A DNA stretch of 64,000 nt from Erinaceus europaeus (Eukaryota > Chordata > Mammalia > Eulipotyphla > Erinaceidae), in NCBI RefSeq assembly GCF_950295315.1, contig NC_080171.1:115377064-115441063 (forward strand). The letters run 5' to 3'. The notes beneath the pieces are model-generated. The model ran no database searches. It saw only the letters and a list, made by a program, of their open reading frames with translations, and was not told where the DNA came from. Both the position numbers and the translations under genes were made by a program. This document shows positions 31,841 to 35,008 of this stretch, in pieces (position 1 is the first letter of the stretch; each line of letters starts with the position of its first letter).

Positions 31841-32233
31841 CAGTGCTTCTCAGCTGGCCATGGATTGTATAACCCAGGCATTTTATTTTATTTATTTATT
31901 TATTTATTTTTAATTTTTTTTTTATTATTAAAGAAAGGATTAATTAACAAAACCATAGGGTAGGAGGGGTACAACTCCACACAATTCCCACCGCCCAATC
32001 TCCATATCCCACACCCTCCCCCGATAGCTTTCCCATTCTCTATCCCTCTGGGAGCATGGACCCAGGGTCATTGAGGGTTGCAGAAGGTAGAAGGACCCAG
32101 GCATTTTATAAATACAATGCCTAAGCCTCATCTCAGACTACTAAATCAGAAGCTTCAAAGGTGGACTTGTGCATTTGCAATTCATAAAGCTCCCCAGGTC
32201 ATTTTAGTGGGCAGACAGGGTTAAGAATTGCTG
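31841..32233 (+). mobile_element. MER5A (hAT-Charlie) split by X
   Basis: Ends CAGTGCTTCTCAG and TTAAGAATTGCTG are near inverted repeats. The inside reads 'CAGACTACTAAATCAGAAGC' and 'TGCATTTGCAATTCATAAAG', classical MER5A text. A non-autonomous DNA transposon, long inactive. Confidence 0.75.
31887..32094 (-). mobile_element. X element 3' end in MER5A
   Basis: Perfect 15-bp target duplication ACCCAGGCATTTTAT at 31872-31886 and 32095-32109. A T-rich tail at left, then 'GGTACAACTCCACACAATTCC' and 'CCCTCTGGGAGCATGGACCC'. Only the last ~200 bp of X is present. Confidence 0.92.
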
Positions 32234-32511
32234 TCTGGATTATCATTGTATATTCCTTAGGTTTAAAATTCAGTCTCTTCTCTTTTCCCATACAGACAAT
32301 GTGTGTACATTCTCTTGGAATACATCACCTTCACATTGCAGTTGAAACAAAAGGCTAAGGCTGAATTCTTAACCTTTTTAATCCTATTCTATTAATAATT
32401 ATCCAGTGATATCATATGTGACAGTGTGAATATCTGGGACCAAATCAATGACTATAATAAAAGTCTTTATTTTTTTAAATCTGTTTTTTAAGCAATATCC
32501 CCCCCCCCCCC

Positions 32512-32615
32512 AGGCAGGGATAGATAGCATAATGGTTATGCAAAGAGACTCTCATGCCTAAGGCTCCAAAGTCCTGCATTCAATCCCCTGCACCACTCAC
32601 TATAAACCAGAGTTT
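32512..32615 (+). mobile_element. SINE-C
   Basis: 'GATAGCATAATGGTTATGCAAA' (tRNA-like A box region), 'GCATTCAATCCCC' (B box), 'CACTATAAACCAGAG'. Same subfamily as 12931 and 34133. Confidence 0.65.
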
Positions 32616-32617
32616 CA

Positions 32618-32851
32618 AATTTATTTATTTGAATAGGACTGAGAGAAATTGAGAGGAAAGGGGATAGAGAGGGACAGAGAGGGATAGAGAGGAAGAGAGA
32701 GGGAGAGAGGGAGAGAGAGAGAGAGAGAGACCTGCAGCCCTGCTTCACTGCTTGTGAAGCTTTTCTCCTCCAGGTGGGAGCAGGGGCTTGAACCATGTCC
32801 ATGTGCATGGTAACATGGACATTTTACCAGATGTGCCACCATATGGTCCCT
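32618..32851 (-). mobile_element. SINE-B
   Basis: 'GAATAGGACTGAGAGAAATTG', long GA block, 'CTGCAGCCCTGCTTCACTGC', 'GGGGCTTGAACCATG' (inverse B box) and 'GTGCCACCATATGGTCCC'. Adjoins the preceding SINE-C. Confidence 0.85.
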
Positions 32852-33011
32852 GAAAGTCTTTAGTTTAGACAAATTATGATTTTGGATTGTCTCAAGTAAA
32901 TCTCCAAAAGAGTTTCAATTCAGATGGCATCATCGTTTTCAAATTAAGAGAAGAAAGACTACAGTGAACACAAAAGTACATGATCTGAGTTCTGCTTCTC
33001 TACTTGTGGCT

Positions 33012-33501
33012 AGTAACTTGTTGTCTAAGTTCATTTCCCACGTCTACGCTCGACCGGACCTGCCAATATACGCGGATATCTTCGCCCACCCTGTTCAACG
33101 CTTGACGTCTCGTCACCCAATCGGGTCCCCTACGCCTACACTGAACTTCTCTGTTCCAGTCTCTTGGAAACAGAGCTGGCAGTCAGCTGAGGTAAAGAAT
33201 AAACACCTCATCACAGACCCCTGCGAGCGTCAACCCGGCTTTGACCTAGCACGTTATGATCGGGCCCTCCTCAATCGCTATCGAACAGGCCATGGTCGGT
33301 GCGCCGCTATGTTCCGTCGCTGGGGAGCCAGAGATGACCCGAAATGCCCCTGCGGCTCCAGACAGACTATGACCCACATAGTCAACGACTGCCACCTCTC
33401 CAGATTCAAAGGAGGTCTCGAAACTTTACATCAGGCTCAACCTGACGCTGTTGACTGGCTACGGAAGAATGGCAAACGCTAGAAGAAGAAGTAACTTGTT
33501 G
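33012..33501 (+). mobile_element. 5'-truncated non-LTR retrotransposon of an unusual lineage
   Basis: The insertion (33024-33489) is bounded by perfect AGTAACTTGTTG copies at 33012-33023 and 33490-33501. It contains only the 3' end of a LINE ORF2. The stop TAG is followed at once by AAGAAGA, so there is essentially no 3' untranslated region and the tail is an AAG/AGA microsatellite, not poly(A). By hand count there are about 30 CpGs in some 460 bp, far above the flanks. Neither L1 nor the X family looks like this. Such C-terminal domains and AAG tails are, as I recall, common in invertebrate LINEs of the CR1/Jockey/RTE-related groups. The clade cannot be fixed without a search. Confidence 0.85.
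33024..33482 (+). CDS. C-terminal fragment of non-LTR reverse transcriptase
   Basis: About 152 codons are open to the TAG at 33480-33482. A further 20 codons upstream, including an ATG at 32964, are host flank read through in frame, so that ATG is not a native start. Numbering from it, R107-T108-G109-H110-G111-R112 precede a zinc knuckle C128-x-C130-x7-H138-x4-C143 with QTM and HIV around the histidine, then a D161-A-V-D-W165 motif near the end. This order is known from the C terminus of several LINE polymerases and lies after the polymerase domain; the catalytic motifs and any endonuclease are absent. It cannot be an active enzyme. No frameshift or stop is seen. Confidence 0.8.
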   Translation, partial: SKFISHVYARPDLPIYADIFAHPVQRLTSRHPIGSPTPTLNFSVPVSWKQSWQSAEVKNKHLITDPCERQPGFDLARYDRALLNRYRTGHGRCAAMFRRWGARDDPKCPCGSRQTMTHIVNDCHLSRFKGGLETLHQAQPDAVDWLRKNGKR

Positions 33502-34063
33502 GAAGATAATAACTTATAACTCCCCAAACAAAGGAGTTCTGGGTGAGGGTCATTTCCTTTTTACTCATGAACATCTGCAAACAAACAAACACCAAGAATT
33601 CCAGTGAGAAGTCCAGTACCAGGCTACCAACTCTGCTCTGCTGTTTCTTTGCCATCTGATAATGAGATTCCTGGACTGTCTCCAATGCACTCGGTCAGCA
33701 AGTATTTTCTGAGTTTCCCGGGTATTTCCGGGCCTCGTGAATAAAGAACTGCTCAGGTGGTAAGATCTCCGTGGGTCTAGAGGCTGATCATGTATGAAAC
33801 GTGAAAGAGACAGGGTCTCATCAACCAGGATTCCATTATGGATTAAATGGGAAAGGTTACAAATATTATAAATTTTTAGAAGAAAAGAAATCACTGAGAA
33901 TTTTCTATTTCTAATTGTGCTGACAACACAAGAACAATTCAGTCCCGTGGATACAAATAGCAGAACTAAAAATTATTCTCTGAGATTGAAGTTATTTACA
34001 GAAAATACAGGGTGAGCTTGCTGTGCCCCCAAATCATGGGGTAAAAACATGCTTTTTTCTTTC
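33502..34063. other. Unique sequence
   Basis: Host sequence right of the LINE insertion. Nothing coding recognised. Confidence 0.5.
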
Positions 34064-34080
34064 ACTTGGTGAGGTAATAA

Positions 34081-34256
34081 TTAGATATAGTTTTATTTTC
34101 CATTTTTATGTTTTATACAGTTATGCATGTATTTATTTTTTTACTAGAGTACTGCTCAGCTCTGGTTTACGGTGGTTGGGAGGGGGGATTGAACCTGGGG
34201 CTTCAGAGCTTCAGGCATGAGAGTCTCTTTGCATAACCATTATGCTATCTACCTCT
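34081..34256 (-). mobile_element. SINE-C with target duplication
   Basis: Flanks GATATAGTTTTATTTTC (34064-34080) and GATATAATTTTATTTTC (34257-34273), one mismatch. 'CTGCTCAGCTCTGGTTTACGG', 'GGGGATTGAACCTGGGG' and 'ATAACCATTATGCTATCTACC'. A T-rich tail segment lies at left. Confidence 0.72.
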
Positions 34257-34483
34257 GATATAATTTTATTTTCTAAAAAATTTTAACACAAAGGAGGGAA
34301 TTGAACATTTAAAAATATACAATGCGGGCAGGGGTAGGTAAAAAAAAAATTGAAAAAAAAATACAATACACTACTTGAGTGACATATTTGAAAATACTTT
34401 CCTTGTTTGAAGCCCCATTTGTGAATATATATATAAATATTATATATAAATATTATTGTGAATATATATAAATATTATATAAT

Positions 34484-34761
34484 ATTTATTTATTTATTCC
34501 CTTTTGTTGCCTTTGTTGTTTTAATGTTGTAGTTAGTAGTTATTATTGTTGTTGTTGATGTCATCATTGTTAGATAGGACAGAGAGAAATGGAGAGAGGA
34601 GGGGAAGACAGAGAGGGGGAGAGAAAGACAGACACCTGCAGACCTGCTTCACCACCTGTGAAGTGACTCCCCTGCAGGTGGGGAGCCGGGGGCTCAAACC
34701 GGGATCCTTATGCTGGTCCTTGAGCCGCCTGCACTTAACCTGCTGCGATACCACCTGACTC
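34484..34761 (-). mobile_element. SINE-A without 3' domain
   Basis: 'TTATTTATTCCCTTTTGTTGCC' to 'GATACCACCTGACTCC'. The word TTGTGAATATAT occurs before the AT-rich tail (from 34457) and after the SINE, a likely target duplication. AT-rich repeats precede it at about 34425-34480. Confidence 0.92.
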
Positions 34762-34808
34762 CTTGTGAATATATTTTTAATAGGCTACTAGAAAATAAAG
34801 AATAAAGA

Positions 34809-35008
34809 GGCCAGGCAGTGGTGCTTCTGGCTAAGCACACACATTACAGTGCACAAGGACACAGGTTCAAGCCTCCGGTCCCCACCTGCAGGGAGAAAGC
34901 TTCATGAGTGGTGAAACAGGGCTGCAGGTGTCTGTCTCTTGCTCCCCCTTCAATTTCTCTCTGTCTCTATTCAGTAATAAATAAACTTAAAAAATAATAA
35001 AAATATAA
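34809..35008 (+). mobile_element. SINE-B
   Basis: 'GGCCAGGCAGTGGTGCTTC', 'AGGTTCAAGCCTCC' (B box), 'CTGTCTCTATTCAGTAATAAA' end and A-rich tail. Confidence 0.88.

What the first reader, a model, noticed from the sequence alone, without database searches (positions are those of the whole stretch)
33012..33501. Recent insertion of an unusual, possibly horizontally acquired non-LTR retrotransposon in a mammal
Seen: an uninterrupted C-terminal LINE polymerase fragment with RTGHGR and a CxC-x7-H-x4-C knuckle (C128, C130, H138, C143), an AAG-type tail straight after the stop, perfect 12-bp AGTAACTTGTTG duplications, and about 30 CpGs. Known: mammalian LINEs are L1, L2, CR1/L3 and RTE/BovB; the first has poly(A) tails, and the others are old in most mammals or, for BovB, lack this C terminus as far as I recall. 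Inference: a young copy of a LINE lineage more usual in invertebrates, so horizontal transfer (for example through a parasite) is a live option. The duplications argue against simple contamination.
Basis: partly seen in the sequence, partly recalled or inferred. Interest (0 to 1): 0.9.

Follow-up and report, generated by a model that had tools for sequence, protein, structure and literature searches.

The report
Young hedgehog LINE, known as Vingi
The fragment is one recent, shortened copy of a jumping gene of a kind rare in mammals that is already on record from hedgehogs; what may be new is that its RNA seems to start with a self-cutting ribozyme, which its short offshoots also carry.

Summary
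In detail: a 152-codon open LINE C terminus, a stop followed directly by an AAG tail, exact 12-bp target-site duplications and 31 CpGs. It is not a one-off. The same unnamed 2.72-Gb genome has 149 further scored copies at 94-97% protein identity; 49 copies differ from their majority by 0.9% at non-CpG sites (best-match sample). The parent is about 3.08 kb, with an apurinic-type endonuclease, a reverse transcriptase, no RNase H found, and internally deleted derivatives. That is the anatomy recalled for Vingi, a LINE clade published from hedgehogs, with horizontal transfer already suggested. So the core claim is largely right but already known; transfer itself was not tested here. Beyond the finding: the parent's 5' end fits an HDV-like self-cleaving ribozyme whose first base is the element's first base, and a 190-bp derivative family keeps it. 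Against this: Rfam's score is below threshold, covariation is inconclusive, one pseudoknot is weak, and cleavage is untested.

The parts
33012..33023 (.). left target-site duplication AGTAACTTGTTG
   Evidence: exact copy at 33490; only two occurrences in the window
33024..33489 (+). 5'-truncated copy of the LINE, from about base 2627 of a roughly 3.08-kb element to its 3' end
   Evidence: blastn against full-length copies L025 and L030; 96% identical DNA; the only match in the window at E <= 1e-5
33024..33479 (+). open C-terminal 152 codons of the endonuclease-reverse transcriptase protein
33345..33392 (+). CxC-x7-H-x4-C knuckle (C108, C110, H118, C123)
   Evidence: the four residues are invariant in a 7-sequence alignment of relatives (C581, C583, H591, C596 of L025)
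33480..33482 (+). stop codon TAG; the element's 3' end follows at once
   Evidence: TAG-AAG at the same place in 16 of 20 loci L001-L020
33483..33489 (+). (AAG)n tail, AAGAAGA, which may share bases with the duplication
33490..33501 (.). right target-site duplication AGTAACTTGTTG

Best explanation
33012-33501 is one 5'-truncated insertion of a Vingi-type non-LTR retrotransposon (most likely the recorded Vingi-1_EE of the European hedgehog), made by target-primed reverse transcription: the endonuclease nicks the chromosome, the reverse transcriptase starts copying at the (AAG)n 3' end of the RNA and stops after 466 bases, and repair leaves a 12-bp duplication. Shown: the copy, tail and duplications; many young relatives in the same genome; endonuclease and reverse transcriptase domains in full-length relatives; short derivatives with the same tail and duplications, so the machinery also works on partner RNAs. 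Inferred: the clade name, the host name, current activity, and the mechanism (established for other LINEs). The parent's first 70 bases also fit an HDV-like ribozyme that would trim the RNA exactly at its 5' end; this is a prediction.
For: Anatomy of this copy. 150 scored matches, 37433 first-look candidates. Mean non-CpG divergence 0.88%, median 0.76%, in 49 copies. EN: PF14529 E 7e-12 and PF03372 E 1e-9; RT: PF00078 E 5e-33; no RNase H family. Full-length L025 and L030. 190-bp derivative: 40 scored copies at 97-100%, 20 of 20 fetched have duplications of 7-15 bp (11 exact, 9 with one mismatch; 2 of 380 mismatched-pair controls score as high as the weakest) and AAG tails. Print: Vingi in hedgehogs, Vingi-1N3_EE with 311 copies under 1% divergence in Erinaceus europaeus (passages).
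Against: No Repbase sequence was at hand, so identity with Vingi-1_EE is inferred from anatomy, age and host. No reference RT of Ingi, Vingi, I or Jockey could be put in the tree. The definition of Vingi (sister of Ingi, no RNase H, internally deleted derivatives) is recalled from the abstract of Kojima et al. 2011, which is not held. The host was not confirmed by a call. The age sample is biased to the best matches. None of the copies I translated reads open through both endonuclease and reverse transcriptase; I did not look further.
Confidence: 0.9

Rival explanations
1. It is an RTE/BovB element or other LINE clade already usual in mammals, inherited vertically.
For: RTE elements are known in shrew and ruminants (PMC6542046 passages). 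Vingi remnants exist in human (X12_LINE; one pre-amniote fossil), so old vertical descent of Vingi in amniotes is possible in principle.
Against: All of the best-listed relatives share the same 3-domain build with the same C terminus, the copies are about 1% diverged and CpG-rich, which is no relic; published surveys name Vingi, not RTE, for the young hedgehog family. RTE1_Sar was not found in hedgehog reads.
Confidence: 0.05
2. Contamination or misassembly: parasite DNA mixed into the host assembly.
For: Named relatives are arthropods; one metagenome protein is 97% identical (P0018).
Against: 149 further scored copies on many chromosome-size contigs; 20 of 20 derivatives each flanked by their own duplication of different unique DNA; the window copy sits between host-like repeats.
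Confidence: 0.01
3. Horizontal transfer into the erinaceid lineage from an invertebrate or reptile, some time before the present burst (compatible with the best explanation; it concerns the origin).
For: Only hedgehogs among mammals are named with young Vingi in the passages seen, one of which calls it a likely horizontal transfer. The three hedgehog-type rows sit on a long stem (0.43 changes per site) apart from arthropod records.
Against: No donor: apart from P0018 the nearest rows are 53-61% identical and unlabelled; the viral collection gave none. Stem length also fits old vertical descent with loss elsewhere. No other mammal was searched here.
Confidence: 0.6
4. The 5' fold is not a ribozyme but a chance or promoter-like structure.
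For: Rfam HDV_ribozyme scores 20.8 bits, E 0.84, gathering score 50. Pairing statistics on 4 copies are reached by 250 of 500 shuffles. The minimum-energy fold without pseudoknots is not exceptional, z -1.31. P1.1 has only one standard pair. In the derivative family one P2 pair is A-C in 14 of 20 copies.
Against: The full double-pseudoknot descriptor has 7 hits in 10 Mb of simulated sequence and 0 with the loop YYCNCGY, yet hits the element's own first base in 3 of 4 5' ends and nowhere else in L001-L052 or the window. The related L1Tc/ingi clade carries such ribozymes at the same place.
Confidence: 0.4

Closest known systems
Vingi-1_EE and its derivatives (Vingi clade, Erinaceus europaeus; Kojima, Kapitonov, Jurka 2011, paper not held; PMC3183009, PMC5753468 passages)
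   Same: Young hedgehog family, endonuclease plus reverse transcriptase, no RNase H found, internally deleted short derivatives, horizontal transfer suggested
   Different: No difference found; the Repbase sequence could not be compared. A 5' ribozyme is not mentioned in the passages I saw.
L1Tc/ingi clade of trypanosomatids with Pr77 HDV-like ribozyme (PMC4035085, passages and section 5)
   Same: Recalled sister clade; HDV-like ribozyme fold at the exact 5' end; short derivatives (NARTc, RIME, SIDER) that keep it
   Different: Pr77 activity was shown in vitro, here it is only predicted; trypanosomatid hosts; poly(A) tails there, (AAG)n here; ingi has RNase H (recalled)
RTE1_Sar of the common shrew (PMC6542046, passages)
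   Same: A LINE in a eulipotyphlan argued to come by horizontal transfer
   Different: RTE clade, nematode source, reported absent from hedgehog
I-Jockey LINEs of the African hedgehog Atelerix albiventris (PMC12026660, passages)
   Same: 4476 copies, 2.2 Mb annotated as I-Jockey; possibly the same family under RepeatMasker's label (inference)
   Different: Not named Vingi there; 'horizontal' does not occur in its text

Membership tests
Vingi clade / Vingi-1_EE (features recalled from the 2011 abstract) | apurinic-type endonuclease and reverse transcriptase in one protein | tested here: met
   Domains found in hedgehog copies piecewise; relatives of 981-1003 aa carry both in one protein.
Vingi clade / Vingi-1_EE (features recalled from the 2011 abstract) | no RNase H domain | tested here: met
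   No RNase H family in Pfam scans of L021, L022, L025, L030 proteins. Among the 120 relatives listed one, P0069, has PF17917, in an ORF fused to another retroelement's RT.
Vingi clade / Vingi-1_EE (features recalled from the 2011 abstract) | internally deleted non-autonomous derivatives | tested here: met
   190-bp family with 5' 130 bp plus 3' about 60 bp
Vingi clade / Vingi-1_EE (features recalled from the 2011 abstract) | host is a hedgehog | tested here: inconclusive
   Genome unnamed; primer searches not answered
Vingi clade / Vingi-1_EE (features recalled from the 2011 abstract) | RT phylogeny next to Ingi; sequence match to the Repbase entry | not testable with these tools
   No labelled Vingi, Ingi, I or Jockey sequences in reach
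L1 | poly(A) tail after a long 3' untranslated region | tested here: not met
   (AAG)n directly after the stop in 16 of 20 loci
RTE/BovB | RT of the RTE clade | not testable with these tools
   No labelled RTE reference; not filed there
HDV-like ribozyme (5' end of the parent, not in the window copy) | P1 of 7 bp whose first base is the cleavage-site base | tested here: met
   20 of 20 5'-selected copies start at that G; P1 pairs in 20 of 20 derivatives; L025 has a mutated first pair
HDV-like ribozyme (5' end of the parent, not in the window copy) | P2 and P3 pseudoknotted helices, J4/2 with catalytic C | tested here: met
   P2 6 bp in L030 type, 5 bp in most derivatives; P3 in 19 of 20 derivatives; C61 in 20 of 20
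HDV-like ribozyme (5' end of the parent, not in the window copy) | P1.1 of two pairs | tested here: inconclusive
   Only C22-G37 is a standard pair; 21:38 is T-T (letters)
HDV-like ribozyme (5' end of the parent, not in the window copy) | Rfam RF00094 gathering score | tested here: not met
   20.8 of 50 bits, full-length match 1-89 in register; that family is of the virus's own ribozymes
HDV-like ribozyme (5' end of the parent, not in the window copy) | covariation of pairs | tested here: inconclusive
   Copies too young; one apparent double change is CpG decay
HDV-like ribozyme (5' end of the parent, not in the window copy) | self-cleavage | not testable with these tools
   Needs a bench test

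The most novel reading that the evidence does not exclude
A young LINE of a mammal begins with a working HDV-like self-cleaving ribozyme that sets its exact 5' end, so it can ride on host transcripts without a promoter of its own; its 190-bp derivatives are ribozyme-plus-tail SINE-like elements, and copies inside host genes would cut host transcripts at the insertion. That would carry the ingi-type Pr77 strategy into mammals.
Probability: 0.5. Interest if true: 0.65.

Novelty: already known. Interest (0 to 1): 0.42.

Why it matters
The window copy itself is a member of a recorded family. It matters as a young non-L1 LINE in a mammal: with a chromosome-level assembly, age, spread and origin can be measured. 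If the predicted ribozyme cleaves, it would tell how a possibly transferred LINE can start making RNA in a new host without a matching promoter, and it would put many small self-cutting insertions into a mammalian genome.

Tried and rejected
Structure prediction of 625 residues of the RT part gave mean pLDDT 47.8 and was not used. Rfam found nothing in window 32000-35000. The PDB gave only weak or general RT matches and no close endonuclease. NCBIfam gave only sub-cutoff general matches. A scan of viral contigs for relatives matched 24 stretches, none confirmed. Most of the 5' ends guessed from long frames failed: 1 of 40 stretches held the 5' region, inverted. The first version of my ribozyme descriptor missed the element itself because its P4 limit was too tight (0 hits in the loci, 3 in 4 Mb simulated); I widened it after that, and the descriptor was written after the fold had been seen, from recalled rules. 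I took an apparent compensatory change in L026 as support until 20 more copies showed it to be CpG decay. A 5.0-kb stop-free stretch in L023 is a run of N. Random sampling for copy density was planned and not done.

Full report
Observation. The DNA at 33012-33501 is as described: two exact copies of AGTAACTTGTTG enclose 466 bases that code for 152 residues, a TAG stop and AAGAAGA. The cysteine-histidine knuckle has the stated spacing; the residue numbers are 108, 110, 118 and 123. The 31 CpGs are exceptional for the window.

Family in the same genome. The window lies on contig C88 of a 2.72-Gb genome in 1172 contigs that carries no name. A six-frame search scored 150 of 37433 loose candidates; besides the window copy 149 match at 94-97% identity. 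In 16 of the first 20 loci TAG is followed at once by AAG units; in the other four the frame ended elsewhere or the motif was missed. For dating I took 49 copies: 57 matched rows less 4 duplicates and 4 short 3' fragments; 48 come from the best-match list and one is a neighbour in L032. Mean divergence from the majority is 0.88% at non-CpG sites, median 0.76%. The sample favours young copies. The window copy differs at 9 of 396 non-CpG and 1 of 58 CpG sites; 4 of the 10 differences are shared by five or more copies and mark a subfamily, 3 by two copies, 3 are private. Six uncommon changes in 454 are 1.3%, or about 6 million years at 2.2e-9 per site per year, the rate used in PMC12026660 (passage); 3 to 10 million years is a fair range.

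Parent element. L025 and L030 run from the first base to the stop, about 3.08 kb. The likely start codon is near base 92. Endonuclease families PF14529 and PF03372 and reverse transcriptase PF00078 are found, RNase H is not. L031 and L085 hold inverted 5' parts. The window holds no other piece of it.

Derivatives. L026 and L029 hold 130-152 bases of the 5' end joined to the last 43-62 bases. The L026 type is a family: 40 scored copies of 612 candidates, 97-100% over 190 bases. All 20 that I fetched have flanking duplications of 7-15 bp, 11 exact and 9 with one mismatch, and AAG tails; of 380 mismatched flank pairs 2 score as high as the weakest.

What it is. The build, youth, derivatives and presumed host match Vingi. 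[quoted passage not shown] Vingi in hedgehogs is listed among older likely horizontal transfers in mammals, and Vingi-1N3_EE has 311 copies under 1% divergence in Erinaceus europaeus (PMC3183009). The founding paper (Kojima et al. 2011) is not held; I recall its abstract only. The name is therefore an inference, a strong one.

Origin. 1707 proteins resemble the RT part, 120 were listed. P0018 is 97% identical and unlabelled, perhaps host DNA in a metagenome. The next rows are 53-61% and unlabelled. Four records bear organism names, all arthropods: Phlebotomus, Cordylochernes twice, Uroleucon, at 43-47%. In a quick tree of 105 rows the hedgehog-type rows stand on a stem of 0.43, beside four unlabelled proteins with support 92, and apart from the named arthropods. 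This neither shows nor excludes transfer. Vingi relics in human keep old vertical descent open.

A ribozyme at the 5' end. The first 70 bases can form P1 (GGGATGC with GCATCYC), P2 (GGATCG with CGATCC), P3 (ACC with GGT), a loop TTCCCGT, P4 and CTGA with the would-be catalytic C61. Rfam's HDV_ribozyme model matches end to end in this register but at 20.8 bits, E 0.84, gathering score 50. A descriptor finds L026, L029 and L030 at the element's first base and nothing else in L001-L052 or the window; simulated sequence gives 7 hits in 10 Mb, none with the loop pattern YYCNCGY. L029's own loop does not fit that pattern, and L025, the fourth 5' end, is mutated and fails. The descriptor was widened once after missing the element and was written knowing the fold. 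20 of 20 copies chosen by match to the 5' region begin at the same G with unrelated flanks; they were chosen for 5' matches, so this shows a fixed terminus, not its frequency. Against: pair statistics on four copies are no better than shuffles (250 of 500), though sliding the partners drops pairing from 97 to 37-53%; the energy fold is ordinary (z -1.31); in derivatives pair 16:65 is A-C in 14 of 20 and pair 15:66 is broken in 4 of 20; P1.1 has one standard pair. For: the L1Tc/ingi clade, recalled sister of Vingi, has such ribozymes at the 5' end and its short derivatives keep them (PMC4035085, passages and section 5). In the one search on this point (phrase 'HDV-like ribozyme' with retrotransposon, hedgehog, Vingi, Erinaceus; 1966 papers with two or more terms, 40 listed, including all with three or more) none of the listed papers holds the phrase. 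Papers outside the library, or with only two of the terms, could.

Verdict. The ribozyme is the part worth a bench test.

Noticed in passing
L095, L096, L098, L099, L101, L102, L104, L105, L112: 9 of 20 copies with an intact 5' end stop being element at base 206-302 and pass straight into unrelated DNA; in 3 of 9 (L095, L096, L112) the flank is duplicated there (12, 14 and 12 bases, the last with one mismatch), against 0 of 72 mismatched controls as good; L102 may have one with a 6-base filler; 5 show none. 5'-complete, 3'-truncated insertions are odd for a LINE copied from its 3' end.
   Followed up: partly
L031:5016-5544 (oriented) and L085: Inverted 5' segments of the element, as expected from twin priming.
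   Followed up: no
L032 (G000:C92:97440000-97447500): Three separate copies of the element within 4 kb.
   Followed up: no
P0018: A protein from a public (ENA) metagenome contig of 2072 bases is 97% identical to the hedgehog RT; probably host DNA in a sample.
   Followed up: no
49 copies, alignment positions 165, 183, 214, 250, 435: Variants shared by 13-19 of 49 copies point to two or more source subfamilies.
   Followed up: no
L023:2663-7662: A 5000-base run of N explains apparent open frames of over 1700 codons.
   Followed up: yes
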